Below, one piece after another: positions 23,486 to 44,864 of a stretch of 64,000 nt of DNA. The stretch's first letter is position 1. Each line of letters starts with the position of its first letter. This stretch comes from Calocera cornea HHB12733. Its lineage: Eukaryota > Basidiomycota > Dacrymycetes > Dacrymycetales > Dacrymycetaceae. Made by a program: the position numbers and the translations under genes. Location of the stretch: NCBI GenBank assembly GCA_001632435.1, contig KV423940.1, forward strand, positions 39,598-103,597, in the 5' to 3' direction. Under the pieces are notes generated by a model. The model was not told where the DNA came from and ran no database searches. It saw nothing but the letters and a program-made list of their open reading frames with translations.

Positions 23486-23743
23486 TGGTGGTGGGGGGTG
23501 ACTCGGGGTGGCCTGGTGCCAGCCCACTCTGCCCGCAGCAGTCGGTGTACAGTCCGGCGCTTCGGGGGCCGGGCTCGGGTGGGGAGGGCAAGTGATAGGA
23601 AGTAAGGAGTGCTAACAGACGGCGGCGGACTGCGCTCTGATCAGCGCTCTGTCCATCGGCGGTTCACAGACGACCGGCACGGCTGTTCGGCGAAGGGCGA
23701 GTGGGCCGGATGGGCGCGACTGCGACTGGTATCGCAGGCCTTT

Positions 23744-23756
23744 TCGGACAAAACCC
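23744..23756 (+). repeat. Left terminal inverted repeat
   Basis: TCGGACAAAACCC is identical to the reverse complement of 44565-44577. An inner matching block ACGGAGGC follows at 23773-23780. Confidence 0.65.
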
Positions 23757-23760
23757 CTGC

Positions 23761-24000
23761 TTCCGGTATTTGACGGAGGCATTCTGCTCCATACTGACGC
23801 AGACTGACCTGTACCGTCAGGTACTGTCAGTATGGCCCGGTACCCGTAGGGCACCTCCGGTATTGGCCGGTACCCGTCGGTATTGCTCCCGTACCTATCT
23901 GTACGGAACTATACTGCTGGGCTGCCTCCGGTACCGCTCCATACCCACCTGTACTGACAGGTACCGGCTCGTACCGTCCGTACGGACCCCGCAACATACC
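23761..24000. repeat. Left subterminal GTAC-rich repeats
   Basis: Many short copies of a degenerate motif around GTACCGTC / TACTGTCAGTA / GGTACCCGT occur in both orientations. The right end has the same composition at 44376-44550. This is typical of subterminal transposase-binding arrays. Confidence 0.55.
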
Positions 24001-24366
24001 CAAATCCCGTAATCCTCTCATCTCCACCGGCTCCCATCCCGCCTTACTTCCCTTGCCGTACGCTTCCCCATCCGCTCTCCCCTTCATTTTTTATTTTCAA
24101 ACACACTGCTTTGGGGGTCTTACCCATCTCGCAGCCGACACCGCACCTGTCACCTTGGTCCTTTTTATCGCTCTCCTCTCATTGGTCTGACCTTTCCCCA
24201 ACCTTTTCCATCCCACTGTTCCCGTTTCAAATTTTCTCTCCCCCCCACCCTCCGTCTCCTGCATCTCTTCCGTTCCCCCCATGCCCCGGACCATCCAACC
24301 TTCCCCTCCCGCCCCCGCCCCCGCCCTTCCTTCTCTCTTGGCCACATTCCACTTTCCATGTCTCAT

Positions 24367-25834
24367 ATGGCCCCTCGTTGTGGCCTCTGCAACTCCACAA
24401 CCAATCTCCGCCAATGTGCTCGCTGTCACTCCGCCTATTACTGCAACGTCCAGCACCAAAGCGCTGTTCGTTCTTTCCCCCCTCGGTAGCTTCTCATCTC
24501 ATAAGCCTGATGTAGATGTGGATCTTCCATCGACTTCACTGCACGCTCCCGATCCGTGTTGCCGCCAAGCCTACGTCCTTGTTCGTTACCTCCTCTCGCC
24601 GGATCCGTTCTCTGTCTAACATTCTAAACAGGTCGTCTGTGATGCTTGCCGGTGCTCTCTACACCCAATTTGGTTCACTTACCTTTCCTTTTCCTCCTCT
24701 TCTTCGCTTGGCCGCCATCCATGCTCAACTGGCTGCTAACATCATCACGCGTCAACGGCATGTACTTCCCCCTTACCCATACACTGCCGTCTGACATCGT
24801 ACCCAGGGCTACAGACCTTACCTCGGCAATCCGGCTCGAATTGGGAGAGTCTGCCCCTACTGGCCATTCCGAACTCACGTCCGTTCCGCTAACTTTCACC
24901 GCGTTTCCCGTCTTCTGAGCGTCCTTCAGGTTGTTGGCGGCTACGGCTGAACATTTTGCCCTCTTGCTCGAGATCGCACCCGCTCTTCGACAAGATCTTA
25001 TCCGGTACCAGTCCACGCTTCATCTTTCCCAAGAGGTCCGCCATTGCTCTATTTAACCTTCCTTCTTGGATACTCAACCTCTCCAGCTCGGTATCGGCCG
25101 TGCCTGGGTCCTCGATCGCGACGATACCCTCATTCGCCATTATTTACCAACCGTCATGGACCTTTACCAGATACCCTCCCTCCAGTACCGTCCACCCGTC
25201 CCAGTTTTGCTCTATGATGTCGATTTTCTGAGTCACTCGTCCTCTCCTTTCGGTCTGCCCGCCTTCTTATTTCCGGGTGCTAAGCGGTGTCCCTCCCTCC
25301 CTGCGGACGGTCGGTTCTGTGCACCGGCACTTCTTCATGTTAGTCATTTCCAACGCCCCACATATCCCCATTGGTACTTATATGATACTCTTCAGCTTTA
25401 CGTTCACATTTTCGGTGACAACCGCTTGCACCACTCCGCCTCTTCGCCCATCTTCTCCCGTCTTGCTACGCCTTCTTCGGAATATTTTGTTCCGTCGCTC
25501 TGTTACCTCGCTACAAGGGTCCGTACCGGTGCTTTGAGCAGGAGTACATACTTTTATTCACCGTTATCAGATCCGCTACGCTCTCGCCGAGGCGTCCGAT
25601 GTCGTCGATAATACCGTATCGACAAACCGCTCCTTTGCACCTGACACCCAACATGCGCCTTCCGTCACCCTTCCCGCTCCAAGTCATCCGCCCCCCTACC
25701 ATGGACCCATCCTCTTTTTTGACTATGAAGACTTCTACTATTCCCTTATCAGCTGGTTTCTGGACAACTGGAGCGATACGGCTGGTCAAGGTATCCAACA
25801 GTATTGGCACCAGAATATAGCCATGGGCCGCTAG
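24367..25834 (+). CDS. MYND-type zinc-finger protein of the mobile element
   Basis: Exon 1 (24367-24465) reads MAPRCGLCNSTTNLRQCARC then HSAYYCNVQHQSA. Removing a 50-nt intron (GTTCGT donor) and continuing at 24516 gives MWIFHRLHC. Together these make a MYND finger: CxxC, CxxC, YYC...HQ, then W-x2-H-x3-C, with His in place of one usual Cys. The middle exons are hard to fix; likely segments include VVCDACRCSLHPIW (about 24632) and LGIGRAWVLDRDDTLIRHYL (about 25082-25150). The last exon is clear in frame: YQIRYALAEASDVVD through DYEDFYYSLISWFLDNWSDT to the stop at 25834. MYND fingers mediate protein-protein contacts, often in chromatin factors. Its role in the element is unknown. Confidence 0.55.
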
Positions 25835-26346
25835 TTCCATACCGTGCTGTACCCTCCCGTCTCGTACTATTGCAGAGGCCCTCCGAAGCCAAAGCCCAAT
25901 GTTATTACCGCAATTACATGCCCTCGAACCGTATCTTAACCCTCTCACACCCACCCTCACATTCAGCACGCACACCCACTCTCTCTCCGCCGTGCCCATC
26001 CGTCACTTCGAGGACAGCGCCAATCCCTCCCGTCACAGTGTAGCTAACCCTTCGGCCATTGCCAGACAACACGACCCACCGTATTCATGTGCACGGTACC
26101 GTAAGGACGGTACCGTAAGGCAACCTTTCACCCCATACAATTTCACAGTACACTGCAGTACAGGTCAGTCTCACCCTGCTCTCCATCGCTTCCTCCCTTA
26201 TAATCGGCTAGGTACATGTAAACAAGCAAGATCATGTCACTGACTACCCTCCCGCGCAGTATCGGAGCCTCTCCCGTCCCAGTTCTGCCTCAAGCCGCGT
26301 GCAAAACTTCCCCTCGACCCTGTATCGTTCCGTCCCTCCGCCGTCC
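25835..26346. other. Convergent spacer with GTAC-type direct repeat
   Basis: This lies between the stops of the MYND gene and the 728-aa gene. ACGGTACCGTAAGG occurs twice in tandem at 26093-26106 and 26107-26120. No gene was recognised. Confidence 0.5.
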
Positions 26347-28663
26347 TCAAGGTCGACGGTTTCTGATGTTGCGCCCTCGACTGGACAGAAATGGGATGAC
26401 CTTCTTTGCGCGGGTGTGCAAGTCTTTCTCATTGATCGTCGCTGCCGTCCGCTCCCCCACGGTGGTCCCCGAGCCTTTGGGTAAAGGCCACGGACGCGTC
26501 GGATCCACGAAATACTTCAAGATTTCCGGCAAGTCTGGGTCACTCTCGCAACCGATGTCCTCGGTTTCCGTAACAATATCGTCAAACAGCTTCACCAGGG
26601 TTCGCTTGTTCTTGAACGTGTTGTAAGGATACCCCATCCAATCCAGTACTTGGTTCGCTATCACCGGTACGCCATTGATCGTGATGGTTCCATCTGCGTG
26701 GGCCGCATCGTCTATCACATGCAGGTGATGGAGCACGGCCTTCACCGCGTGCCAGCGGCGGAACTTGGCGATGGCCGGAGAGCGATCATGGGTGGGCCGT
26801 TGCGCCAGCGGTACCAGCTCACTGGACCCAGGCATGTCTCGAAGGCGGTCCAGCAAGAGGGCCTCTAAGGCAACGCTCATGTTCGGTCCCCCCAGCACTG
26901 GACTTGGAGTCGAATTACCCGCGGGTACTGTCCCTCCCGTACCTGTGTGTAACACCATCGCGGTCGTCGATCCACTGTCGTTTCGCCGCGGTGCCCCGAT
27001 GACGCGATAGTAACCTCCACCGTTGGCGTTCCCCCTTGCTACCTCGACCTCGGGGTTTCGAAACGCCCGTGTCTGTAAAGCTGCTGTGGGGCCTTCGGGC
27101 TCGGCAACCTCCCTTACTGCGAGTGCGCTCTCCATAGCTTCGTGCGTCGCCACCCTAATGCCATCTTCTCTCGGAGAATTTGCGAACAGTTGTAAGGGTC
27201 GATCCGGCGTACATAAGTCCACAGCTTCTTCGCCTGTTCCAGTAGACGACGATGACAAGAGCGGTGCATCATCGTCCAGCGAGACATATGCGCCGGGGCC
27301 TGTCTGGGGTATTGCCGCGAGCCCCGTCAATTCCTGTCCCACTGGCACTGGATCGCCACACGGTAATGGTGATTCCTATATTGCACACCGTGAGCAAATC
27401 CCTTCTAGGCTACACATACGGCCGGGCAGAGCTCCGGGCGCACTCGAAAACGCACCTTGAGGAGTTCAAAGCACAACACGAACAGGTACTCGTCCATACG
27501 CAGTAGGCGCAGGTTGTCCAGCACGAAACGACGGGTGATCGCCGATCCCACGAGCACGGAGCTGATACCCCTGGCCGTGACCAGCTCGCCATGGATCGCA
27601 TCGCGTGCGCTGGCCAACCACCATCCGCCATGCTCACGATTGTCTACCGCGTGGATGGCGGCGGGCACTCGGGAGAGCCAAAGTTCGTGACAAACTTCGT
27701 ACGTTGCCCAACCCCGCCGCGGCGTCACGTTGGCCCTCACGATGTCCATGATGACATCCACTCTGGTACGCATCACATCATCATCGATGCGATATACGGC
27801 TTCCTCCAGGCGGGCGTGGCGGATCAGGTATTTCTCCGGCGCCCCCCGCCCAAATCCTGTCATGAGCACAAGTATGCTACATCGCCCAGGATGATTGGCA
27901 GGAGCCGCGTCGAGAGCTTCCTGAATGACCAGTTCGGTAGGTCCAATCACTGAGGGGGCCGTACTGTGTTCCCCCACTTCGGACTGTGCCAGATCGTTTT
28001 CCCCCGTAAACCAAGGCTCGACCGAGGCGTCGCCGGCCCCCCATCCTCCATTCGCTACATCTTGTGCCCCCTCGTCCCGTGGAGAGCCCTGCAACGTCCA
28101 TTCTTCCCGTATCAAGTAGTCTGCCGCACGTTCCCTCGCCATGGATGACTCGTCGGCGCCGTCCTGTCCGTTACTCAGATCCCCTTCTTTGTGCGATCCG
28201 CGTATGCACTCACACGTTCCTGTGGATCGTCTTCCGTTGCCGCGGCCAATACGCCCGCTCCCTCCACCTCTGAGGTCATCTGATCGCTGGGTGGTTGGGT
28301 CGAACTTTGGGAAGCGAGGTCGGGGAAGCTTGATTGGGGGGGCGAGGTATGTTGAGTGGGGTCCGGGAGGCGTACGGACGTGGCTTCAACCATACTCTGG
28401 ATTTCAGCGCCCCCCCCTTCCTCCGACGCTCTGGTAAGTTCCACACTGGATGCCACGTTCCCCTCTGGATGAGGCTCGACTCGCGTGGATGCCTGATTGC
28501 ATGTTAGAGTCGTGCGTGGTACGCAAGGGGGGCGGGAGATGCGGCGGTGCCCACCATCGGCCCACCTCACCTGTTGTCCGGTCCTTGCCCGCTTTCTAGG
28601 CCTTCCACTGGATACAACACGTTGCGCTAGCGTACGGGGACGTAGGTCTCGCGACATCGCCAA
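26347..28663 (-). CDS. 728-aa protein of the mobile element, unknown function
   Basis: Three exons close in phase (28663-28214 with donor GTGAGT, 28163-27456, 27375-26347). The first 150 residues are basic then Ser/Pro-rich (RPRKRARTGQQVRW is a likely nuclear signal). A central ordered block contains RHARLEEAVYRIDDDVMRTR, WATYEVCHELWLSRVPAAIH, GGWWLASARDAIHGELV and ITRRFVLDNLRLLRMDEYLF. The last part has AKFRRWHAVKAVLHHLHVID, NQVLDWMGYPYNTFKNKRTL and KYFVDPTRPWPLPKG. I do not recognise the family. The gene is transcribed divergently from the integrase gene across a 213-bp spacer. That arrangement suggests co-regulation and a role in transposition. Confidence 0.65.
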
Positions 28664-28876
28664 GACAGAGATGCTAAACTTGTTGTGCTCGACCGGGGAA
28701 GTGTGGAAGCGAGCGATGCTGGCAGCCGGAGGAAGGTGACTGGGACGGTGGCGTATTGGTACGGGTCCCTTGGGTCTCTCCGCAGTACTGTCAGTACCCC
28801 TCCGTACCTGTCGGTACCGCGTCTCCGCTCCCCATGTTGGACGGCCATCTCTCTCACTCTCACTATATCACTATTT
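28664..28876. promoter_or_regulatory. Divergent promoter between the 728-aa gene and the integrase
   Basis: The 213-bp spacer contains clustered GTAC motifs (AGTACTGTCAGTACCCCTCC, then GTACCTGTCGGTACC at about 28781-28820) resembling the subterminal repeats. An AT-rich TATATCACTATTT lies just before the integrase start. Confidence 0.45.
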
Positions 28877-30674
28877 ATGTCGCTCCCCGAAGGCGTATCT
28901 CAGCAAACACTATTACAATGGCGCGCTGCTATAGTTCAAATCAGAGATCATTTCGATCGCGGGATGCGGGGACATCAAGGCGACTTGCCGTATTGGCGAC
29001 GAGTGCAAGCTGAAGGGGAGCGGTTGCTCGACAACCTTGGCGAAGTACGTTGTCCCTTGACTGTGAGCACTGTCGTCTTACATCTCACCAGATCTGGGAA
29101 TGGATTCCTGAGGAGGAAGGATACGCGGCCGAGAGTCTGCTCACAGCCATTCTGGAACATGCGGAGTCAGTACCGGACCAACCAGATCCCACCATTGGCG
29201 GAAGAGGTCAACCCATGGCCCGCACTTCTGAGGGTGCGGCCGGTGGGAGACCCAAATTCATCATCAGCAAAGATTTCTTGGTTATCGTACTGCAAATAGT
29301 CCCTCGCAAGACAGCCATTGCCCAATTCTTGGGCATATCTACACGAACTCTACAAAGGCGCATAGTCGAGTACGGGATACGGCCGGCGGGGCCTCCCGTT
29401 TACGTAGAAAGACGGAACGATCAGGGCGAAGTGGTGGTGGAGCACACTCCGAAACGGACGAGATGTACCTGGTCCGACGAACAATTAGATCTCGCGATCA
29501 AATGGGCTCTGGACCGCTTTCCTCGGTTGGGGCGCAACATGCTGCAAGGGTACTTCGAGGCGCAAGGCCTGTACGTCCCAGAGTGGAGGTTGGGTCTGGC
29601 CCTCCGCCGGATGGCCCCCCATCGCCAGTTTGGACAACGCATCCCTTTGGAGAGGCGGGTGTACCACGTCGCAGGTCCGAATGCCCTGTGGCATGTCGAT
29701 GCTCAGCTAGGTACGCACCTCGACCATTGCGTGAGTTTTGCATTGAAGGGTTGCCTCGCCCGGGGGTAGGCATCGTGCGTTATGGCCTTGTGTTCCATGG
29801 ATTGATAGATGGCGATTCGCGCTTATGTGTTGCACTGCAAGTCGCCACCAGTAACACCAAAGAAATGGCATTCCAAGCTTTCCGGGATGCCTGCCTGCGA
29901 TACGGGACACCTTCCCGTGTCCGGGGCGACCATGGATTAGAAAATCTGGACATCGCCACATGGATGAACTACAACAGAGGCGTCAATCGAGGCTCCTTTC
30001 TGTGGGGGCGGTCAGAATATCTCACTGTGTCATTTTTGTCTATCCGTACTGATTCTGCCTCGCCCAGATCGGTCCATAATGTTCGTATTGAGCGAATGTG
30101 GGTGGATGTGACGAAAGATTTCGGCGGCAAGTGGAAAAAGTTGTTTATTCATCTGGAGACTTGGTATGAGCTTGATATTCAGCTCAACGCACACATATGG
30201 CTCCTCCATCATCTGTTCTTGCAAGATCTCAGGGCCGACGCAGAGATGTGGCGTAGCACCTGGAATGCGCATCGCATGCGCACCCCAGACGGCCCGGTGC
30301 GGTCCCCAAATCAAATGTGGTATCTCGGCATGTTGATCCAGGGTTATCGAGGCATTCATGATGAGGGCTTGTGGAGGCAAGCTCCTCATGACGGCGGAGG
30401 TGATATGTACGGCGTCGACTGGCGCGCATTGCAGGACGATGCTCTCATGCAACACCATACTGGTACGCATCCGACCGGTTTCACCGAGTTCCGGGTCGAC
30501 CACCCCAGTTGCCCTCTGAGTCCCGAAGAGGTCGTGCAGCTGGACGCCGATGTGATGCCCTACATGCAGGGTGACAAGACGGTCATGGGTTATCATCGTC
30601 GGTGGGTCATGGGCTTGAGGGCCTTGCGGCGCGTCGAATACGCAAGAGTCGCGGGGGTGCAGACGGCGGTTTAG
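28877..30674 (+). CDS. DDE integrase-core (rve-type) transposase of the mobile element
   Basis: Four exons close in phase (28877-29044, 29092-29710, 29770-30010, 30068-30674) and give 544 aa. The N-terminal half has a helix-turn-helix-like segment (KTAIAQFLGISTRTLQRRIV) and a second helical block (WSDEQLDLAIKWALDRFPRL, then NMLQGYFEAQGLYVPEWRL). The catalytic core follows the retroviral-integrase fold: first Asp in LWHVDAQLGIVRYGLVFHGL, second Asp in RVRGDHGLENLDIATWM, and Glu in GRSVHNVRIERMWVDV. The C-terminal part (LLHHLFLQDLRADAEMWRST, WNAHRMRT, PNQMWYLG) matches the tail of the integrase-core proteins found in Agaricomycetes and animals. All three catalytic acids are present and no stop interrupts it, so it is probably active or recently active. 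Confidence 0.85.
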
Positions 30675-31440
30675 GCAGTGCGTGCAATGGCAGCACAGCG
30701 TACATTATCGTGATGGATATCTCGTGGAGATCGCTCTGCCTGTGCTGTGAGAGAGGAGCCCTCGCTCGTGCCGCTCCCTGAGGTCTTGCTCGCAGTCCCC
30801 TCGTCCAGAGTCGTCCAGAGGCGCACTGGACGACGATAGTTCAGTATCAATCCCACCCTGCGCAGTGTGAACCTCCATCGACGGTGACGGGCGCGTGGGC
30901 ACAGTGCGTGCGCGCGATGCCTGAGCTCGGCACGCAACAGGCGCGTGCCGCGCAATGGGTCACGAGTGTAACACGTATGATCGCCTGGGTGTCTCCCGTA
31001 CGACGATAGTCCGTGTTCGTAACGGTCGGTGGGTATGTGGTGGTCGTTCGAGCCGTCAGGGGTATTGGGGGTCTGCGTGCAAATGGACCAGACACCGTTT
31101 CGGCAAACCACTGGCCCGGACAGTGGCCGTCCGGCGAACACTTATCCATCCCACGGCCCCAATGTACTGACGGTGGTACAAGCATGTCGTATTGCTGAAT
31201 GTATGCTACCTAGAGTACAATGAAACCCGTATGCCTTGACAGTATGATTGCACTGTCCGAGCAATCAGCTAACTGTCCGGGACTGGCGTGAATTACAAGA
31301 CGCACCGAGCATAGTACCAGAATTGAATACGAGAGCTTTTACGAGCTACAGCCCAAATCGATTAGCCGCTGAGAACGCTTCGTGGTCGAAAGGGAACGCA
31401 CCAGTAAAACCCACAGCCAAACTCAGCTCTCTGCCCGTCC
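30675..31440. other. Spacer in the mobile element
   Basis: Weak minus-strand frames occur (for example 31185-30847 and 30902-30671), rich in Thr, Arg and Cys, but no splice-consistent gene could be built. GTACG motifs are present at about 30995-31025. Confidence 0.35.
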
Positions 31441-31749
31441 TCAACAACCTCCTCCGGCAACGAGCTGGACGATGGCCGTAACGCACTGGAAGAGTGCCGT
31501 GCAGCACGAGCACGATGCCCCGATCGTCTGGGGTATGCCGGCCGCGGGGGCGGCGCCGTTCCAGTTGGGAGGAGGGTAGGCCGGGGTGACAGACATGACG
31601 TTGGCCGGCGGGTACTGATACGGCATGAGTGGGCCGGTGGACAGAGCGGTCCACTGCCAGGCGGGGACCAGCGGCACGGTGGCGTAGGCGAGAGGTGGGG
31701 GATTGAGCTGGGGGTTGGGATAACCGACCGCAGGTCCGTAGTAGGCCAT
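31441..31749 (-). CDS. Short Pro/Tyr-rich protein with Cys-rich hydrophobic tail (CYSTM-like)
   Basis: This is a single exon of 102 aa. The N-terminal three quarters is Pro/Tyr/Asn-rich (MAYYGPAVGYPNPQLNPPPL, PYQYPPANVMSVTPAYPPP). The C-terminus has a cysteine cluster, SCSCCTALFQCVTAIVQLVA, followed by GGGC and a stop. A PYP-rich head plus a short Cys-rich hydrophobic tail recalls CYSTM tail-anchored, often palmitoylated proteins, but similarity by eye is only compositional. The clean start, stop and composition argue that it is real. Its place inside the element is unusual for a transposon. Confidence 0.5.
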   Translation of the reverse strand: MAYYGPAVGYPNPQLNPPPLAYATVPLVPAWQWTALSTGPLMPYQYPPANVMSVTPAYPPPNWNGAAPAAGIPQTIGASCSCCTALFQCVTAIVQLVAGGGC

Positions 31750-32873
31750 GTTGGGTATGGGTTAGACGATGGTTGATCGGAAGAGGCGTACGGTACGAGT
31801 TGAGACCGATGGGTGACGATGTCGAGGCAGGATCGATTGACGGTGTAATGTCCGAGCAGCCAGGGACGGCTATGGGCCGCGCGGAGTGGCGCTTGCAGGG
31901 GTCCCTACGCCGCGTCGACGCGAGTGGGCGTGACCATGTACTAGTGGCGTCCCGCGGCTCGACAGACTCATCCACACCGTGACAGCACCGTCCATTCGCC
32001 CTCCAGACGAGTACGGCAACGGCGGGAGCCATTGTAGGATGGTCTAGCGTGGCGAACCGTTGAGGGTGGGTGGGCCTAAATACTTCGGTGACGATCCGGA
32101 GAGGCGGATGGCTATGTCGTGAGGTTGGCACGAGAGGGCGTGGGCAGGAGGTTGGTCGGACGAGCGTCGAGGCGATGCGAAGGAGTGAGTGGTGTGCAAT
32201 CGTGGCTGGCGAGGGCTTCCTTAGAAGTGTAACGTCGAAACCTTGATGTCTTCAAAGATATAAGCGAATCGGAATATCTGAGTGAGGTTACAAAGAATGG
32301 TGAGGAGGGTCGAGAGCTCGGCCAGCGAGATGCAGGAAAACGAAAACGACGTGGGAGAGAGAGACAGAGGGGCGGGTGGGGCGCAGCGGCGTTTTATCAC
32401 CAGAGGGGCGGCACGTGGCAGAACGGAGGTTATTCGACTTGCCGCCGCGGCGGCAGTATTCTGATTGGTCCGGCTGTCAACACAGCCACGCCTGGCATAT
32501 GTAGGGTTAACTACTGTAGGCATGGGCAGGTCACCTTGCCTTGAGCAGCCTTGACGTGGTCTGGTCGTCGCAAAGTTCCACGCCCGCACGACGAGGTGAA
32601 AGGCCTGACCCAGAAGCCCGAGGGGGGTCGAGAGCGAGTACACGCGAGTACGGACCGGTACCAGCATCAATGGGTGCGCCGCCAGACCTTATCGTGTCCA
32701 GTGCGGTGCCGCGTCACTAAGGCCGGCGGGAATGCATCAGAAGCTGTGAGATTCATGGGTAGACCGCTGCCAGGCTTGCGCGTCCCCCGACGATGCGCGT
32801 CGGGGGACGCGGCTTGCTTCCTGTCCACCACCCACCCATCCGTGTTTATCTGCCAGGCGCTACACACCAACGT
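31750..32873. other. Spacer upstream of the first DUF6532-type gene
   Basis: No splice-consistent gene was seen. Minus-strand frames at 32670-32221 look incidental. It includes a long inverted repeat at 32779-32811. Confidence 0.35.
32779..32811. repeat. 14-bp-arm inverted repeat (stem-loop) upstream of the DUF6532-type gene
   Basis: The left arm CGCGTCCCCCGACG (32779-32792) and its exact reverse complement (32798-32811) are separated by 5 nt. It is very GC-rich and lies 63 bp before the start codon at 32874, where it may fold in the 5' leader or form a DNA cruciform. Confidence 0.8.
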
Positions 32874-34963: not shown

Positions 34964-35836
34964 AGACGGCGCCTTTAGAAGCCAACAATATGTAGGGCCG
35001 GGATGGACCGAGGAGTATCAATGACAGAGGGGATCTAGCCAGGAATGGATGGTCTGGAAAGGGCAAGGAAAGGAGAGGATTACAACGGCGAAAGAGGCGC
35101 GGTGACCCGGACTGTTGTACGTATCGTGTACGAAGACAAGAGCACTGTCGCCATCGAGCATTATGGCCCTAATGACATTCAATTTGACGGCGCTCGCCAG
35201 CGGGGAACGGTACGAAGTGATGGAAGGCGAGCCACGCACTCGGCGGCACCGGTGGCGGGATGACCATATCACCGATGCATCCATACGGCCGTGTACTCAC
35301 ATGCGTGGCACACTCACACCCATACGGAAATGTGCGGTACTGCTCTGTACGGTACTGCTCTGTACGGTCATACGGCGTACACGCCGGGAGGTGGCACCAA
35401 TTCAGCGCTATGAAATGTTGGATTAGTGTCGATCTACATGGTAGTAACTAGACCGTGGGAAGCCGGGTGTGTGGGAATACAGCTGGAATCATGCGCTTGA
35501 GAAGTGAAGGAAAAGAGTGTTGGGCTCTAGGAGGCGATTGGGGCTGACCCCTGCCTCTCCGCAGTACATGGATGTTAAGATATACTGGGATGGACGTGGG
35601 ACGCGTGGGAGATCGTATGAACCATGTTGGACGGGATAAGACGGGGCGGAGTGGAGAAAGGTGAAGAATGAGCGAGGCGGTTATTCCGAGCGAAATGAAA
35701 GATGAATGAAGAGAATGTAACGGCTCTTCATGCTCGGATCCAGAGCTGGAGTGGATAGATGGTGCACACAATAAGATGACGCGCGGCGTCGATAGATCGT
35801 TGATTGTCGAAGCCTGGTCCAGGAGGAGCTTGTTGC
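34964..35836. other. Convergent spacer with GTAC repeats
   Basis: It holds GTACGG motifs at about 35280-35390, including a 15-bp tandem duplication ACTGCTCTGTACGGT at 35339-35353 and 35354-35368. No gene was recognised. Confidence 0.5.
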
Positions 35837-37761
35837 TCACTCTGAGTCGGTTTCCAGGAAGAGCCACTCCTCCTCAGCCTGCGCATCGTCCTCAGCATCC
35901 TTTTGGACCTCGATCACCTTCCTCGCAGTTTGTGCATCATGCACCTTACTAGTATATGCGTGTGGACCGTCAGCTGGCATATCATGAACAACGCGGGGAC
36001 ACGTACACGGCCACGGCCAGCAGATACGGCAGGATCTCGTCATATTTGGGACGACGTTTCCGCTTCAGCCAATCCAGGTTCCACCCCAAAGTCCGGTATG
36101 CGGGTTGGTAATCCGCCTGATTAAACTCGCTGGCTACGAACCGCCCGGTCTCATACTGTTTCAGTGCAAACAGCAGCTGTGAGAAGACGACCATTAGGCA
36201 TGTGCGGGGCATACATAGTATGTGGTACATACCGCTACGGCCGCGGCGGTGATGACGCCGTCAGGCTCCCGCTCGGGTAGAAAGAGTTCTGGGAAAACAT
36301 GGCCGTCACCCTCAACGCCGTTGCCGAACCACGCCTGCATGATCACAGCTCTGAGAGCGGGAGACTGGAACGGCTTGCTGCGAATCATCTCATTGGTATC
36401 TGGATCAAAGGAGATCTCCCCGTAAAGGTATGAGTTGGCGTCGAGGAGACGGGCGACCTCAGCGCGCCGGACTTGATCGGTGACATGTGAATCGAACAAC
36501 TCAGGAAAGCTCTGTTTCACCACCGTCTGAGCGACACTCTTGATTACAGTGCGAAACCAGGGTCCATAATGGGAGATCTATCACCGAGCCACAGAGTCAG
36601 GCCCGCAATCCAGGGGGGTACCGGGCGTTACCGGAACTTACGAGGGGTTTGGCCAAAGTCAAGTTGCGCCCTTGCAAGGTTCCGTGGATGGCGGCGGCGT
36701 CTCCTCCGGCGATTTGCTTCTCCCAGCGCGCGTGAGCTGATCGATTGGCAAGCAATATCGCCGTCGCCATGAATTCTTCTCTCTGGTTGTCTTCCGCGTA
36801 AAGATTGATGGTTGCAAACTGGAGGCGAAACAATATCTTCGCTTCCTGAATAGTCTCCTTGAGTTCGGGACAGAAACACTGGAGCTTGATACCACCCTTC
36901 TCGGGTGGGATGGCAGCGGGAGGGTCGTGGATTGAGGAGAGTGCAGTGGTGGTCGGTGCCTCGGGCGTGGCGTCATCGGATACCGTGGTCTTGGTTCGCC
37001 GGGGCTTCTTGCGCGCAGGCTATATGGCACGCAATGTGATGAGCGATGTGCGGCCATACGCCTGTCGGGACATTGCGTACCTCTCGTTTAATAGCGACCT
37101 CAGGTTCACGTGAGCGTTTGGCGTGGCGTGGCTTACGCTTGCGCGAGCGGGTACTGGATCCCTGCCATGGACGTGAGTGCATGCGCCTGGTCACCACGGC
37201 CAAGGCGGTCAGCGTACCTGGTAGCCTTCATCACTCAACTCTTCGACGTCCTCAGTCCCAGACTCGGGCAGATAGTCCTGGTTGCCATCCGATACACGCT
37301 TTTTGCCATCCGATACACGCGTTTTTGCGGTCTGTTTGACCTGGACCGCGGAGGACTTGGGCGGAGGGGGCGCCAACAAGGTCGAGACCGGCACGGCCGC
37401 TGCCTTTTGCCTTGCAAACCAGCCCCGAGCGCCGGACGAAGCTGCAGGGTATGTCAAATCTTGCGATTATACAAATCAATACGGAGTACGACATACTACG
37501 AGGTGGAGGCGTCGGTGCGCTGTCAGCCGTGCCCGTGGTGGTTTGGGCCGGGGCGACAGGTCCGGTTTGGGATTGAAGGACCGGTCCAGACCGCAGACCG
37601 CCGTCGGGGAAAGGTGCAGGCACAGGGCCAATAGATATGGAACTGGTGAAGAAAGTGACATGGTGCTGTGGTTCCCCGAAACGCAAGGCCCCGGTGGAGG
37701 AAGGCTGTACGGGACGCACAAAGTTAGCTGTGGACGCGTCTCGGATAGCTATGACGCGCAA
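35837..37761 (-). CDS. DUF6532 domain protein 2 (in mobile element)
   Basis: The minus-strand exons join as follows. A disordered Pro-rich start (the start codon, about 37761, is uncertain) leads to VQVKQTAKTRVSDGKKRVSD and ESGTEDVEELSDEGYQ. Next come SSTRSRKRKPRHAKRSREPE and PARKKPRRTKTTVSDDATPE (nuclear signals), then the DUF6532 core: ETIQEAKILFRLQFATINLY, FATINLYAEDNQREEFMATA, ILLANRSAHARWEKQIAGGD, KQSFPELFDSHVTDQVRRAE, ARLLDANSYLYGEISFDPDT and FQSPALRAVIMQAWFGNGVE, with VFPELF and ITAAAVAV and then LLFALKQYETGRF. It ends DDAQAEEEWLFLETDSE at 35837. The order F/Y-x-Y, ...SP.+R.VI...WF, +FPE.F, A..AV, ALxxYETG is the DUF6532 pattern. A 21-bp direct repeat at 37283-37320 encodes the doubled RVSDGK. 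Confidence 0.75.
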
Positions 37762-38660
37762 CTGACCTCCGACAGCAGGGGGTAGAAGGCCCGAAAGGTG
37801 GTCAGACCCGACATGGCGAGGTAGATTGAGGACCGAGGCGCCGGGGGAGGGCTGGAACGTTTGGCGCCGATGGGTATATGCACGGATATGTCGCGTCCGC
37901 GAGCACGCTAGGCGATGAGCTGTTCGGATGTGATGGCGACGACAGTCCAGTCAGTTAAGGTAAGCTGGGATGGAAGAGGTGCAATGATGTGCGGTTACAG
38001 GCGTGCGTATGTCGACGTGAGAACGCAGACAGTCGTTGGGCACGCTGTGTGCGCCGGGTGGGAGGAGGAGAGGATTGCAGGGTACTGACGCGTACTGCAG
38101 GTATCTGGGGGTATGACCCCGTACACAAGGCGTACGGACGCGGAAGCAGCTAGTCCGTGAGAGCGGAGGCAAACAGCCGAGTGTGGAATGGCGTCTCCGG
38201 GGTCCTGGTCACGTTACCCCCGGCAATTGATCACGGGATACGGCGACCGTGGCAAAGCCAAGCCTCCATGGTATTTTGGAGAACGGAGCAGAGGACCAGG
38301 GAGTGAATGAGAGGACACACCTGGGGAAATTACCAATGTAGAGCACGGAAGGGAAGCGGGCGATTCGGGGGAACACGTGTTGTGGGCGTTCTCGCGCTGC
38401 TCTTTCGTGATGCGAGCGCGGTATCGCCGCCGAAGGAGACGGCGAGTTCTTGCAAGTCCTGATTTCGGTTGCGAGGTTCGTTCAGGGGGGGGGAACGACC
38501 CCGGAACGGGACGACGCCATGAAAATTAGACGGCTCTCGGACAGCTACATAATCAGGCAGGAAAAGCGGGACACTGAATCGCGAGTTCGTCAGTTCCCAG
38601 GTCGACTACAGCAGGGCGCAGCACGCAACAAGCCTGTGACTCGACGTGATCGACTGGAGA
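37762..38660. other. Spacer between DUF6532 gene 2 and a plus-strand gene
   Basis: A GTAC-containing stretch lies at about 38080-38130. A plus-strand frame at 38450-38731 may include a 5' exon of the next gene, but I could not join it. Confidence 0.3.
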
Positions 38661-38689
38661 ATGCCAAAAGCCAAGGGTCATTGTGGGTC

Positions 38690-39590
38690 ATAGGTCCAGA
38701 CGCATCCGGGTGTACGGGTCGCTCACGGTGATACGGATATCAGTTTCACGGATGAGCACAGGGGGGAGAATTCCAAGACGTCACTCCGACAAGTCCTCAG
38801 CAGTGAAGGGGGTTGGAACAACCTCTGTAGGTACAGTCTGGGGGGGATGGCCCGTGTGTCATTGATACTAACGCTAGTGAAGGGGTTGGAAGGTGCGACT
38901 GGACATATGGACGACGTGGAATATGGGAGGGGGGATGAAGGAGTTCTACTTGCCGCGGCAGGGAGTGTCGGTGAGTAGGGCTGAGGTTGAATACGGAGTT
39001 CTGCATCTGGCTAACTCGCTGTTCTAGAGAGCATTCGGGAAGAATCGAGCGTGGACATGAGTGTGGAAGAGATGGCGCGCTCGGACGAGAGGGTGTCTGC
39101 GAGGGCGCTCTATGCGACGGGTCAGGACAGTATGACTCGCCGCGTCATAACGTTAACTAACGAGACGTAGACGGATATGCTCGGCTAGAAGACTCCGATG
39201 ATGGGTCCGGTACTGAACTGGAGAGGTGGTCGCGCTACAACGACCCTAACCACCCCCAGTACGGGGAGGAGACCTTCGGAGGAGGTGTCAACCCGGCAGA
39301 CCGAGATACGAGAGAGAGACAAATCGAGGCGATGGCGCTTTCCTTCAAGGTTAGCCCCCGGTTCTTGAAACGGAAGTGCCGCGGCCGCCGTAACGGTGAA
39401 ATCGTGAAAGAGCTCTGGGTCACCTTGTCGGCCAAGGTAATACGCCGCAGTGGAAGGTGATTGGCGGACTGGCTAACCAAGACTGGCAGTACTACCCGAA
39501 GAAAACAATCGAGGAGTGGAAAACGCTGTTCAAATGCAACAAAGGTTCAGTTCGCAGACGTGCCCAACAACTGGCGAAGAGGACCGAATG
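38690..39590 (+). CDS. Basic/acidic unknown protein of the mobile element
   Basis: The 3' exons are consistent: GDTDISFTDEHRGENSKTSL, then VKGLEGATGHMDDVEYGRGD, then (across the intron ending at about 39027) ESIREESSVDMSVEEMARSD, then NGYARLEDSDDGSGTELERW with DPNHPQYGEETFGGGVNPAD, IEAMALSFKVSPRFLKRKCR and GEIVKELWVTLSAK. It ends with YYPKKTIEEWKTLFKCNKGS and RRRAQQLAKRTE, then a stop at about 39590. The start is not resolved, so the left border is approximate. An acidic middle followed by a basic end suggests a nucleic-acid- or chromatin-binding protein. I do not recognise the family. Confidence 0.5.
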
Positions 39591-39993
39591 AGGGTGACCC
39601 AAACTGGAGGATATCGCAGCCTGGTCGGAGATTACCTTAAGAGGTCGTGCCGTACGCATGTGTATTGTACGGCATTCCATATACCACCTGTTTCCCATAC
39701 GGTCATCAGGTTGCGGTACGGACGATGTGTCACTGAACTAGGATGACGATCTCAGTGAATGGTATCAGCCAGCACCCCGGCGCCATGTATTGGGCATGTG
39801 TATTTGGGGATCGACGGATCACGGAGAACACCATATCCTGGCTGCGTTAACCTATGCCATGTTCGCACGACGTAGACGCGACGCAAGCAAGGCACCAGAA
39901 GGAACATCTCTTTAAGTAAGGGGATTTAAGAGCACATCACAGAATAAGGCGATGTAGGGCCATGAAGATAGATTCTAACACGTAGCTCCCGGC
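39591..39993. other. Convergent spacer in the mobile element
   Basis: GTACG/CATACGG motifs occur at about 39650-39722, again between convergent genes. No gene was seen. Confidence 0.45.
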
Positions 39994-42900
39994 TCATACC
40001 ATGTTCATTGAGAGAGTCTCACCTAGGCGACCATCGCCAATCATTTGAATGAAGAGCATGGCTTCAAAATCGTCGGTCCACCCGGGACTGTCTTGATGGT
40101 ACCATGGGGATGATCCATTTTCCAGTGGAATAAAAACTTGTTTGGTACATGCGTGGAACTTGCAGTGAGACAACGCCATGTCCAGTTGTAACTAGAAAAG
40201 AACGAATAAGATAATACCGAGACAGGTGAGGCAGAGATACGCGAGGAGATGAATCACGTACATAAAGATAGGGGGACTTTGGCAGAAGGTACGGTACGCC
40301 AGTAACGACACGATAAAAGGTTATAGCGCGGTACAGGAGATCCTGACAGGCGAGGTCGGAGAACGAAGGAGGGGGTACCCAATGTCCGGCCGTACGCAAA
40401 GCGCACGCATGCGGAGGGACACCGGTACCTCGGAGGAACTGGCGGCAAGCCTGATGGATGGCGAGCTGTTTGCTGATTGGCATGACGTCCGGGGGAAGGT
40501 CATGCCATTGCGTTTTGTTGATGACATCGTCCGGGATGCGAATGCGGAGATCGGGCCACATACAACGCACGAAGGCGAAAGGAGTCACCCCAGCCGGCAC
40601 TAAAAACTAAAGCAGATGTCAGGGTGACAATCCCGTTAGAGGGGGGCGTACGGACATGATCACGGAGGGTTCGAGGGGCAAATGGCGCATTAATACCCGC
40701 GGCGAAGGCTTCCAAGGCCTGCGTGTCGTTTCGGTCGGAGACAAAGAGAACCCGATGTAAGATGGAAGTGAGCCAGGCACGATGCAAAGCGGGAGTCCGC
40801 GGTTCCGAAAGATCTGAATCCTGGACAAGATAAGCGGATGGCGACATAAGAAGAGGAGCAGGAGGTGTGAAAGATCAGAGGGATGACTAACTTCAATGTT
40901 GCCAGCCCCATAGACGACGGAAGCCAAGAAATGCTCCGGATGCGAGGGATCCTGAGACACTGGGCCGTGAGTAAGCTGGTCTAGGAAGTATGGGTTGGCA
41001 GGGTATGTGCCATAACCCGCGGTAACGTACCATACTCTGAGACATAGGTTTGAGACGGCCTTTAGGACCCATGCGATGGAAGAGCTGGACAAATTTCTCA
41101 ATGTCAGGGGCGAAATATCGCAAGACACGAGGAGTAATGGTATCTTCTCCAGCGATAGCGACCAGAACAGTGAGCGGGGAAAAGGATGCGGGTCCAAAAT
41201 GGAATAACTTCAAAAAGACAATAAGGAGTAAGCCGAGAGCGGCCAGCTCGATCCTAGCGTCGTCGTTTAACGTACGAGCTTCGGGCGGGGCACTGGGGCC
41301 GAACAATTTGATCCGTAAGGTGCTGTATTCTCCGAAGGAGAGGGGGGTGAGGAGCGAGTGAAAGGTCTCGAAGGTGGCTTGACATATTTCGAGGACAGCT
41401 CCGGCGCCAATACCATGGCCTCTAGAAGATGCAGTGTCAATGATTGGACGGGCATAGAGACAAAAAGCTTGAAAGAGGAGACGTACGCCATGATAGGGAA
41501 GTGAAGCACGGACATGATAACGGGAATCGAGCGTGGAACGTCGGGAATTAGTCCAAGAGCCGGCTTGACAGCGTCAAGCAAGTAATCGCGAAAAGTTTGC
41601 GCTGCGTCCTGGAGGGTACGACAGGGTGGATAATAGTCCAGATCAACGGGGGGAGGTATGGGATTGAGGTTGGCGACACACGTCTTCCACCGGGACACAA
41701 TGTCGTCATCGGTCATAGGGGTAGTGTCCAGGGACAAGGGGAGGAGTGTGTCGGGAGGGGGGGGGACGGAAGCGGTATGAGAGGGTGACAGGGTATGAGG
41801 GTGCAAAAGAGGGGGAAGAGGCGCCGGCGGGCGGGGGGGGGGATAGGGAGGCGCCGGAATGGGCAGCGATGGAGTGGAAGAAGGTGAGAGTACCGGAGGA
41901 AGATTGGAGGATGTAGAAGGCACCGGGAGGGAGGCAGATGGTGGTCGATCATATGAAGCATGTCGGTATGCCGGCATTGCAGGATATTGAGAGAAGGGCT
42001 GGTCTGCATGGGGGGGGGGATCCAGTGACACGACCGAGGGGGGTGAGACGGCGTGGAGCGGATGGTCCATGCCGCCAACGATGGGTGACACTAACCGAAC
42101 GGGGTCCGCAAAGGGCGGTTGGGTGATAGGCGGGGGTGGAATGACGCGGTTACCGGGGGGAATAGATGGTCCAGGACCGGAAGGGTACGTGAAGCCGTTG
42201 GAATAGTGTACGTAGGGAACGTGAGGGTTGGGGGGAGCATACAGATACGTATGGTGAGGTATAGAGTGGCCGAGGGGAAGTGGTGGTGGCGGTAGGGAGG
42301 GGGCAACGCCAGCGGACGGAGTGTGGTGTTGTGGGTGGGAAGGGGGACGGGACGGGGGGGGAGGTAGATGGGGAGGGGCGCCATGAGAAGAAGGCCAGGT
42401 GCAGTATGGTTCGGGCAAGGGGGCCGTGGAGGGTGGAGCGGCGTTGCCATTGAGAAGACTGGGAGGGATCAATCTGGGAGAGGTGAGGCCTGGAGGAGAC
42501 CTGGAGCGGAGGGCCCGATCAGCAATGGCCCGAAGTTGAGGTAGATTAACGGGTTTCTGGATGGAATAGTCAGCGAAGTGAAAGGGGGGAGAGGGTAGCG
42601 TACTGTGGGGGCACCAGAACAGCATGGAAGGGTGTCGCTTTGGAAATACTGCATAAATGGCCAAACGGGAGCGTTGTCGGTGTGATGGTTGGGGGTCGAT
42701 ATAGGACCATAGGCAGGTGCTGCCATCAGAAGGAGGTGAGACAATTTTACCCTAAGTAGAAGAACGGAGGGCGAACCAAATTCCATGACCAATGGTAATC
42801 GATGCGCTTTGCGGCGGCCACGAACGTATTTAGAAAGAGATTTGATGAGGGAACCGACAGTGAGTCGGTCGAGCACAGTAGGTGGGACCATGCGGGTACG

Positions 42901-43953
42901 GTCTGGTAGGAGAGGCAGAAGGGGGACGAGAGGTAATGAAGAGGGTGGATTCTGAAATGCAGTAGGAGTATGAAGGGGGGCGGGTGGGATGGTGAGATGG
43001 GAAAAGATTCGAAGGAGGAGGGCGACCAGATCGGATAGGCTGGTATCGTCTGGTAACGTAAGGCAGGCTAGAAGGCCCTCAACATTGCTCCTGAATAAAG
43101 GTTAGGGGAAGAAAATACTGAGGGGTACGGGAAGGGACTGACGCCTCGAGAAAGGGAAGGAAAGCGGTGACGTAGCGCTTGTGGACCGCGGGCGGGTCCT
43201 GTATAAGGAATATTATGAGGAGAGAGGGACGAGGGGGAGGAAAAGAGCGAGTGGACGTACGGGGCTCGGTGAGGGGTAAGCAGGAAAGACCCGGAGTAGA
43301 ACGAGGAACTCGGAACAAGATGGTGAAATGTCTGGTATCATGCGTCGCGACCGGAGAGGGCGCTGTCGTAGATGACTCTCTTCGACGGTGGGTGCGGTAT
43401 GGCGTTGCATGCTGCGAGTACGGGAGGCAAGAGTGTACGTACGGGCTTGAGAGTCGGATGGGGCTGAGTCTGAGGCGGTATCAATGTGTGGAGCTTGATG
43501 GGGGACAGGGAGGGAAGTGGTTTCTGAGTGGGAGGCGATAATGCGTCGAACGGCGTCCTGCGCGGTATTACGACCGGGTCCAGTAGGGGCCATTATGCTG
43601 AGAAGATTATGAGCAAGTTGAGGATCATGCGGCGTGGCATGGGGTAAAAAGGGTTGAGAGGAAGATGTTGGAATTGAGAGGTGGCGTGTGTCGGCGCTGT
43701 TGAGATAGCTGGATATAGGAGGGGGAGGCAAATGATTTAGGAGGGGATGTGTGCAGGAATGGCATGGAAGAAGAAGGGTCGCCGAGTCCATGGGCGGGTA
43801 TACACCATTAGAGAGGATGAATCCGGAGTGGTCTTGGGGGAGAACGTAGCAAGAGCAGACGCAATGGGAGCTCGTAGGAGACGGGTGAGATAGAGGGGTA
43901 CAGCAGGCATGGACAAAGTGTCGCACGGTACTGATGGTCGGGGTGCTGGACAT
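39994..43953 (-). CDS. Large HECT-like protein of the mobile element (putative E3 ubiquitin ligase)
   Basis: This is a multi-exon minus-strand gene starting MSSTPTISTVRHFVHACCTP at 43953. Cys/His pairs near the start (HCVCSCYV, CHSCTHP) suggest a zinc-binding module. Next are KRYVTAFLPFLEASNVEGLL, a helical block (LIKSLSKYVRGRRKAHRLPL) and a 250-residue Pro-rich region (about 42480-41700). The C-terminal part resembles a HECT fold: IPVIMSVLHFPIMAGHGIGA with AVLEICQATFETF (across an in-phase intron), LRIKLFGPSA, then PFAFVRCMWPDLRIRIPDD and, close to the end, CKFHACTKQVFIPLENG with a Cys in the place of the HECT catalytic cysteine. It ends at 39994. Several middle introns were not fixed, so the exact length is unknown (probably more than 900 aa). 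The HECT assignment is from motif order only. Confidence 0.5.
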
Positions 43954-44375
43954 ACGGAGCAGTATGGGGTGGTGAAATCGCAGAGGCGGAGCGAGAAGGT
44001 AGCGGCTGGATACTAAAAAGGAGAGAATGGTGCGTTGGGCAAGGGAGGGGAAAGGGGAGAAAGTCAAGGGGAGATGGACGAAACAGAGGAGATCACAGAG
44101 GGGTAGGGTGTCCGTTGGGGATAGCAAAACAAGGAAGACATGTGACACCCAATAAATGGCTGAGAAATAATCAAGGGGGAGAAGGTAAATAGATCGATGA
44201 TAAAGGACTGGCAGACCCCAGAAAGAGTTAACGCGGGGCGGGACGGGGGTACGGAAAACACCAAAGGAGAAAAGGGCGGGAAAATAAAAACAGTGGATAC
44301 CGCGGGTATCAGACAGTACGGGGTCCGGCATGGCGCAATCTGTTGCCGGCGGGAACAATAGAAGGAATTTTGTCG

Positions 44376-44550
44376 GTATGAGTGGGTCCACGTCGGTACG
44401 GGGCAGTACCGGTGGGTACGGAGACGGGAGCTAAAGGATACGGAAGCGTCTGGACGGGCCAGGAGCGAGACTGCGAGTACGGGATGGATACCGCCGTGTA
44501 CCGTCAGTATGGGACGGTATGGGACGGTATAGGCGAGTACCCGACAGTAT
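44376..44550. repeat. Right subterminal GTAC-rich repeats
   Basis: Motifs such as GTCGGTACGGGGCAGTACC, GTACCGTCAGTATGGG and the 10-bp tandem GGGACGGTAT (44511-44530) mirror the left subterminal region in the opposite orientation. Confidence 0.55.
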
Positions 44551-44564
44551 AGCCTCCGTGGGTA

Positions 44565-44577
44565 GGGTTTTGTCCGA
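44565..44577 (-). repeat. Right terminal inverted repeat
   Basis: It reads GGGTTTTGTCCGA on the plus strand, the exact complement of 23744-23756. The inner block GCCTCCGT is at 44552-44559. Confidence 0.65.
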
Positions 44578-44864
44578 CATACGCTGCGTTAGACTGGGCT
44601 GCGCAGCCGAGACACCGCTTTCACACAGCGGGTCCATCGCCGCACGAGGGCCCATCTCGGAGCAGCGGAGAAACGGCATAGCCACTGAACGGTGGGGACA
44701 TGACTCCCTCTTCTCTCGGAATACGTTGCATACTACGTCTTCTAGCTAACCAGGGTTTACATACATACAGATACTGATGTTTGTTTGTTTTGTTGTGTCG
44801 TCTTGGAGGGATGAGCGGCGCTTGCACTTTTGCAGACATCTTCGGGTGCGGTTGGGCAGCGGGG

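What the first reader, a model, noticed from the sequence alone, without database searches (positions are those of the whole stretch)
23744..44577. 20.8-kb inverted-repeat-bounded element carrying an integrase and a multigene cargo
A perfect 13-bp inverted repeat (TCGGACAAAACCC) plus a second matched block (ACGGAGGC) and mirrored GTAC-rich subterminal zones enclose a compact set of at least eight genes: DDE integrase, MYND protein, HECT-like protein, two DUF6532-type proteins, a 728-aa unknown, a CYSTM-like peptide and a basic unknown. Host-type genes lie immediately outside both ends. Integrase-core proteins are known in Agaricomycetes, but I know of no described element with this cargo, so it could be a new type of large, gene-rich DNA transposon.
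Basis: partly seen in the sequence, partly recalled or inferred. Interest (0 to 1): 0.88.

Follow-up and report, generated by a model that had tools for sequence, protein, structure and literature searches.

The report
Giant nine-gene cut-and-paste fungal transposon
In a jelly fungus, a jumping-DNA element about 21,000 letters long carries its own integrase-type enzyme and eight other conserved genes, and several sister copies and short hitchhiking derivatives lie elsewhere in the same genome, so this is a real, unusually large and gene-rich transposon rather than a chance pair of repeats.

Summary
Confirmed, with corrected borders. The 13-bp repeat is the inner part of longer ends; the element spans 23730-44591 (20,862 bp), begins and ends TA..TA, and is flanked by a perfect 6-bp duplication, GACTGG. 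Of these, 24 form 12 pairs with identical 6-bp duplications: nine large copies (five on one contig, 20.9-23.8 kb; four split across contigs) and three 0.56-kb derivatives. Three large copies have near-identical ends at unrelated sites, so movement was recent. Nine genes recur in 4 of 4 fully read elements, in rearranged order, with a purifying-selection pattern. G2 and G9 were found only at elements; DUF6532 genes are common elsewhere too. The integrase is DD35E without an HHCC finger; termini, duplication and enzyme fit the published IS3EU superfamily, though no IS3EU sequence could be compared. It therefore looks like a giant, gene-rich variant of IS3EU, not a new transposition mechanism. 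'HECT-like' is not supported. Accessory functions are unknown.

The parts
23730..44591 (.). whole element, 20,862 bp
   Evidence: termini defined by comparison with other copies and exact 6-bp duplication
23724..23729 (.). left target-site duplication GACTGG
44592..44597 (.). right target-site duplication GACTGG
23730..23756 (+). left terminal inverted repeat TATCGCAG-N6-TCGGACAAAACCC
44565..44591 (-). right terminal inverted repeat TAACGCAG-N6-TCGGACAAAACCC
23811..23984 (.). left subterminal cluster of GTAC-type repeats (13 motifs)
   Evidence: inferred transposase-binding zone
44242..44591 (.). right subterminal GTAC-rich zone (outer 350 bp)
   Evidence: 5.14 motifs per 100 bp against 0.61 in host DNA; the stricter cluster rule did not pick it
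24358..25834 (+). MYND-finger gene, six-exon model, 402 aa
   Evidence: model; zf-MYND E 1.6e-4, just under cut-off; ten places in the genome, each with an element end or an integrase nearby
26347..28657 (-). G2, unknown protein, three-exon model, 738 aa (deposited model 600 aa)
   Evidence: nine matches in the genome, eight on copies with an identified end and one (C94) beside the other element genes; no convincing Pfam family or solved structure
28877..30674 (+). DD35E integrase-type transposase, three-exon model, plus a probable in-frame 54-nt intron
   Evidence: rva_4 8e-59, rve 1.4e-5; D-D and D-E spacing 56 and 35
31441..31749 (-). small protein with Cys-rich hydrophobic tail (CYSTM-like by eye)
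   Evidence: conserved in 4 of 4; no Pfam hit
33677..34858 (+). DUF6532 gene a
   Evidence: PF20149 5.4e-18; model
35982..37814 (-). DUF6532 gene b
   Evidence: PF20149 9.7e-31; model
39189..39591 (+). G7, small basic protein, start uncertain
   Evidence: conserved in 4 of 4
39994..41716 (-).
   Evidence: 64-73% identical in 4 of 4; no HECT or other credible Pfam hit
42469..44005 (-). G9, unknown, N-terminal exon uncertain
   Evidence: conserved in 4 of 4; 19 exon matches on ten copies; no Pfam hit

Best explanation
It is a giant, multigene DNA transposon of the IS3EU (IS3EU/GingerRoot) kind. Inferred mechanism: the DD35E integrase-like transposase binds the terminal inverted repeats and subterminal GTAC arrays, joins the TA..TA ends to target DNA and makes a 6-bp stagger that repair turns into the duplication; cut-and-paste is the expected mode for this enzyme class. 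Shown: exact ends, 6-bp duplications, several copies including near-identical recent ones, short derivatives with the same ends, and nine genes kept together in four elements. Inferred: that excision is cut-and-paste, that the GTAC arrays are transposase sites, and that the eight accessory proteins serve the element (regulation, escape from silencing or help in transposition) rather than the fungus.
For: Ends: 27 pattern matches against 0 control; 12 pairs with identical 6-bp duplications; for the nine large pairs, letter-shuffled 6-mers gave a mean of 0.19 pairs (maximum 3 in 20,000), 6-mers at -12 to -7 gave none, and no match extends to 7 bp. Right ends of three copies 99.7-99.9% identical over 0.6-1.5 kb with unrelated flanks. 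Co-linear copy C153 and rearranged C32 and C179 share all nine genes. In-frame pN/pS 0.17-0.66, against 0.82-3.08 out of frame with one exception. G2 and G9 found only at elements. Integrase core domain, DD35E, no HHCC finger by eye. Integrases of seven cargo-bearing elements form one clade, support 0.963. IS3EU features as published in PMC10045372 and PMC12730594.
Against: No empty site was found for the 3 insertions queried. No second strain or species could be compared. The window's own termini are TATCG and TAACG, not the TAYGG reported for rust IS3EU, although several sister left ends are TATGG. pN/pS segments were chosen by protein similarity, which biases them low, and one comparison (G2 with C32) shows no frame contrast (0.58 in frame, 0.55 in frame +1). 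Many DUF6532 genes lie on contigs with no element found. One carrier of the gene set, C94, has no end that I could find, and C104 only one.
Confidence: 0.88

Rival explanations
1. A Polinton/Maverick or other virus-like integrated element: integrase plus replication and capsid genes.
For: Similar size, integrase-type enzyme, 6-bp duplication (size and duplication of Polintons recalled).
Against: No polymerase B, capsid, ATPase or protease in Pfam scans of nine gene models and 20 open frames; ends start TA; the one exon used as query found no relative in viral contigs. G2, G8 and G9 have no known fold, so a hidden viral protein is not excluded.
Confidence: 0.04
2. A small integrase transposon that passively captured host genes; the cargo is incidental.
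For: DUF6532 genes are frequent away from elements; gene order differs between copies.
Against: The same nine genes in 4 of 4 elements with purifying pattern; G2 and G9 not found away from elements; distant G8 relatives sit beside distant integrases on C16, C292 and C28.
Confidence: 0.1
3. A new superfamily distinct from IS3EU that has converged on TA..TA ends and 6-bp duplications.
For: Size and gene set unlike any IS3EU element in the papers read; the closest of 97 public integrases listed is 44% identical over 54% of the query.
Against: The general IS3EU features that could be tested are met.
Confidence: 0.1
4. Chance inverted repeats around ordinary host genes.
For: The 13-mer alone is weak evidence genome-wide (8 matches, reversed control 5).
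Against: Twelve pairs with exact 6-bp duplications and multiple copies.
Confidence: 0.01

Closest known systems
IS3EU / GingerRoot superfamily (Repbase; PMC10045372, passages read)
   Same: TA..TA termini, 6-bp duplications, DDE enzyme without HHCC finger, first catalytic D 100-300 residues from the N-terminus
Styx of Zymoseptoria (PMC10853768, passages read)
   Same: integrase linked by its authors to IS3EU, 6-bp duplication, accessory genes, recent activity
   Different: 7.9 kb with four genes (transposase, GATA, CCHC, DUF3577); ascomycete
TET-carrying IS3EU of rust fungi (PMC12730594: abstract, passages, section 3.2 and first part of section 4 read)
   Same: 6-bp duplication, TIRs ending TAYGG..CCRTA, accessory genes
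   Different: accessory genes are TET/JBP and alpha-kinase; neither was detected here
Starship elements (recalled; named in PMC12210899 passages)
   Same: large fungal cargo carriers
   Different: Starships use a tyrosine recombinase (recalled); none detected here
Polinton/Maverick (PMC6431247 and PMC12210899 passages)
   Same: integrase, size
   Different: no polymerase B or capsid genes detected here

Membership tests
IS3EU/GingerRoot | TA..TA termini | tested here: met
   all 24 paired ends begin TA; the search pattern itself asked for TA, with up to 2-3 mismatches allowed
IS3EU/GingerRoot | 6-bp target-site duplication | tested here: met
   12 of 12 pairs; 3 of the 27 matched ends (C7, C104, duplicate C219) are unpaired
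IS3EU/GingerRoot | DDE integrase-like transposase without HHCC finger, first D at 100-300 residues | tested here: met
   rva_4/rve hits; first D at residue 259, D-E spacing 35; one Cys upstream of the core, by eye
IS3EU/GingerRoot | TAYGG terminal motif (reported for rust TET+ IS3EU) | tested here: inconclusive
   window ends are TATCG and TAACG; sister left ends C153, C26, C7, C104 and the short derivatives are TATGG
IS3EU/GingerRoot | clusters with IS3EU transposases in a tree | not testable with these tools
   Repbase sequences and supplements not available
Polinton/Maverick | polymerase B and capsid genes | tested here: not met
   no Pfam match in nine models and 20 frames
Starship | tyrosine recombinase gene (recalled) | tested here: not met
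   no such domain in the Pfam scans
KDZ / Plavaka | KDZ or Plavaka transposase; 7-8 or 2-3 bp duplications (PMC12730594 passages) | tested here: not met
   no such domain in the frames and models scanned inside the element; duplication is 6 bp

The most novel reading that the evidence does not exclude
A founding example of giant, autonomous, DDE-driven gene carriers in Basidiomycota, in which eight accessory genes form a co-adapted module, several of them families known only from these elements, that the transposon needs for its own life cycle, making it a DDE counterpart to the Starships of ascomycetes.
Probability: 0.3. Interest if true: 0.82.

Novelty: new variant of a known kind. Interest (0 to 1): 0.62.

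Why it matters
Most cut-and-paste transposons carry one or two genes. A 21-24 kb DDE element keeping nine genes together across diverged, reshuffled copies, with recent transposition, suggests that IS3EU-type elements can become large gene vehicles in Basidiomycota. It asks directly what unknown accessory proteins do for a transposon, and gives clean, testable ends and substrates.

Tried and rejected
Structure of G2 from three sequences gave mean pLDDT 32 and was not used. The integrase model (pLDDT 67) matched retroviral integrase cores only weakly, best E 0.12, so it agrees with the Pfam result but proves nothing more. The genome search for G8 was first run with the same early model and repeated with the corrected one, with the same places plus one at the start of C27. 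In the PDB profile search G8 hit a triple fusion of the pilin CfaB at E 2.4e-8; single CfaB chains score only about 0.1, and I judged it spurious. Other weak hits not used: DUF6698 with the MYND protein (E 0.016), RWP-RK with G7 (0.094), Rad26-like with one G2 (0.046). Inversion breakpoints carry no repeats above shuffles. The first end pattern had a spacing error and found nothing, corrected. An automatic terminus finder failed its own positive control and was dropped. Internal GTAC clusters vary (3, 2, 1 and 0 in the four elements; 1 in 41.8 kb of host) and are not claimed as a conserved feature. Integrase loci of a second family were only partly read. A scan of viral contigs with one integrase exon found no relative.

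Row handling: the duplicate C219 end was left out and C153:7022 added, giving 23 ends; one search lists 27, of which C7, C104 and the C219 duplicate are unpaired.
Full report
WHAT WAS CHECKED. Taken alone across the 32-Mb genome the 13-mer is weak evidence: 8 matches against 5 for the reversed control. Reading around those matches showed that seven of the eight share conserved sequence further out; two of the seven are a local duplication at the end of contig C219, and the eighth, on C7 near 319,307, is a chance match. Left ends there read TATCGCAG-N6-TCGGACAAAACCC and right ends TAACGCAG-N6-TCGGACAAAACCC. So the true termini lie 14 bp outside the reported ones, and the window element is 23730-44591, flanked by GACTGG on both sides.

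COPIES AND DUPLICATIONS. A search for the extended end gave 23 matches with 0 in the control, and a slightly wider pattern 27 with 0 in the control. I sorted 23 ends into 14 left-type and 9 right-type and compared the 6 bases outside each. Each of the 9 right ends matches exactly one left end. Five pairs lie on single contigs: C27 (the window, 20,862 bp), C153 (21,219), C32 (21,502), C92 (23,054) and C179 (23,784). Four pairs are split between contigs: C29-C278, C194-C239, C219-C27:2942 and C26-C196. Letter-shuffled 6-mers gave a mean of 0.19 pairs (maximum 3 in 20,000); 6-mers taken further out gave none; no match extends to 7 bp. Three further pairs are short: 568, 559 and 558 bp on C17, C19 and C29, with duplications GTGTTC, GAAGAC and CACTGG. 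These look like non-autonomous derivatives (MITEs) with the same ends. Unpaired are C7 (70-72% similar to the MITEs over about 525 bp, so probably a decayed one), C104, and the local duplicate of the C219 end.

RECENT MOVEMENT. The right ends at C27:2942, C239 and C278 are 99.7-99.9% identical over 0.6-1.5 kb while their outer flanks gave no match at E 1e-10, and each has its own duplication. Their matching left ends are identical over the 90-97 bp available. No empty site was found in the same assembly for the three insertions queried, window, C32 and C92.

GENE CONTENT. The four elements I could read in full (window, C153, C32, C179) share nine genes: MYND-finger gene, G2, integrase, a small Cys-rich protein, two DUF6532 genes, G7, G8 and G9. 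C92 was not read in full. Exon models came from a home-made splice finder with a conservation bonus; N-terminal exons of G7, G9 and some G2 and MYND models are uncertain. The deposited protein for G2 in the window is 600 aa (P0098); my model is 738 aa. Order differs: C153 is co-linear with the window; in C32 the block G2-integrase-small protein-DUF6532a is inverted; in C179 the small protein and DUF6532a also lie on the other side of DUF6532b. Order and strand of the search hits put C92, C104, C94 and C196 with the inverted type. Breakpoints carry no recognisable repeats.

SELECTION AND LINKAGE. In-frame pN/pS is 0.17-0.66 for the nine genes in three comparisons; shifted frames give 0.82-3.08, except G2 against C32, 0.58 in frame and 0.55 in frame +1. 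Because segments were picked by protein similarity, in-frame values are biased low. G2 has 9 matches in the genome: eight on copies with at least one identified end, and one on C94, which carries the integrase, G8, G9 and MYND genes too but has no end that the pattern found. G9 has 19 exon matches on ten copies, nine with an identified end plus C94. The MYND gene falls on ten places: eight copies with an identified end, C94, and C127 beside a more distant integrase. G8 falls on the same kind of copies (nine, and a tenth at the start of C27), and weakly on C16, C292 and C28 near distant integrases; two very weak places, C136 and C245, were not examined. DUF6532 is different: 88 exon matches, many on contigs where no element was found, so it is a widespread family that the element carries rather than owns. 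These searches score only the best candidates, so counts are lower bounds.

THE ENZYME. The integrase scores 8e-59 to Pfam rva_4 and 1.4e-5 to rve, the latter under its cut-off. Catalytic residues are spaced 56 and 35 apart, that is DD35E, with the first D at residue 259 and, by eye, no HHCC-type finger upstream. The seven integrases from cargo-bearing elements form one clade with support 0.963 in a midpoint-rooted tree of 106 core domains. Of 97 public relatives listed, those with an organism name are Agaricomycetes proteins (classification recalled) called hypothetical or integrase domain-containing. A model from 41 sequences matches retroviral integrase cores only weakly.

ENDS AS BINDING ZONES. 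The outer 350 bp of each end in all four elements read carry 4.6-7.7 GTAC-type motifs per 100 bp, against 0.6 in host DNA. By analogy with other DNA transposons these are probably transposase sites; this is inference.

HOST. Calocera belongs to the Dacrymycetes. No other species gave a G2 relative in that search, which scored only 7,996 candidates and has limited sensitivity.

COMPARISON WITH WHAT IS KNOWN. PMC10045372 (passages) states that complete IS3EU families always have TA..TA termini, usually 6-bp duplications, no HHCC motif, and the first D 100-300 residues in. All four are met here. PMC12730594 (abstract, passages, section 3.2, first part of section 4) describes IS3EU elements of rust fungi with 6-bp duplications, ends TAYGG..CCRTA and TET/JBP plus alpha-kinase genes. 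PMC10853768 (passages) describes Styx, 7.9 kb, four open frames, 6-bp duplications, a transposase its authors relate to IS3EU. PMC6431247 (passages) treats eukaryotic transposons over 20 kb as giant; the large DNA examples in the passages are Helitrons, Polintons and Teratorn. IS3EU is named in other mushroom genomes: a family MarorIS3EU-2 in Marasmius oreades (PMC9674265, passage) and IS3EU copies in Ganoderma (PMC8955403, passage). Searches on giant or cargo-bearing basidiomycete elements, on DUF6532 with transposons, and on every held paper naming IS3EU (35 titles, listing read) showed no description of this element in titles and abstract openings; the search with Calocera cornea listed 15 of 5,016 papers, none of which names the species. 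Only open-licence PubMed Central text was searched, and Repbase was not.

VERDICT. A real, recently active, giant multigene transposon, best filed as a new large variant of the IS3EU kind, pending a tree. The accessory module is the interesting part: at least G2 and G9 appear only in these elements in this genome, all nine genes are conserved, and nothing is known of what G2, G8 and G9 do.

Noticed in passing
window 56585-57937 (+): A Plavaka transposase (PF18759, 7.4e-64) lies in the same window outside the element.
   Followed up: no
window 48229-48858 and 52702-53314 (+): Two further DUF6532 loci lie outside the element, between it and the Plavaka transposase (converted coordinates).
   Followed up: no
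G000 C34:213790-217353 and C94:123145-126431: A second integrase family (46-50% identical core) has two copies 99.97% identical over 3,287 bp; C14 and C52 copies are co-linear at 66-77% identity over about 4.4 kb, so other multi-kb integrase elements probably exist.
   Followed up: partly
L039, C29:226972-227573: A 558-bp MITE and a giant copy of the same family sit only 18 bp apart, the gap including both duplications.
   Followed up: partly
window 33335-33364: A perfect palindrome inside the element, two 18-bp arms that overlap.
   Followed up: no
L069, C32 about 111,829-111,975 (positions 14429-14575 of the joined C32 stretch): A tandem-like GTAC motif array between the integrase and the small protein gene of the C32 element.
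   Followed up: no
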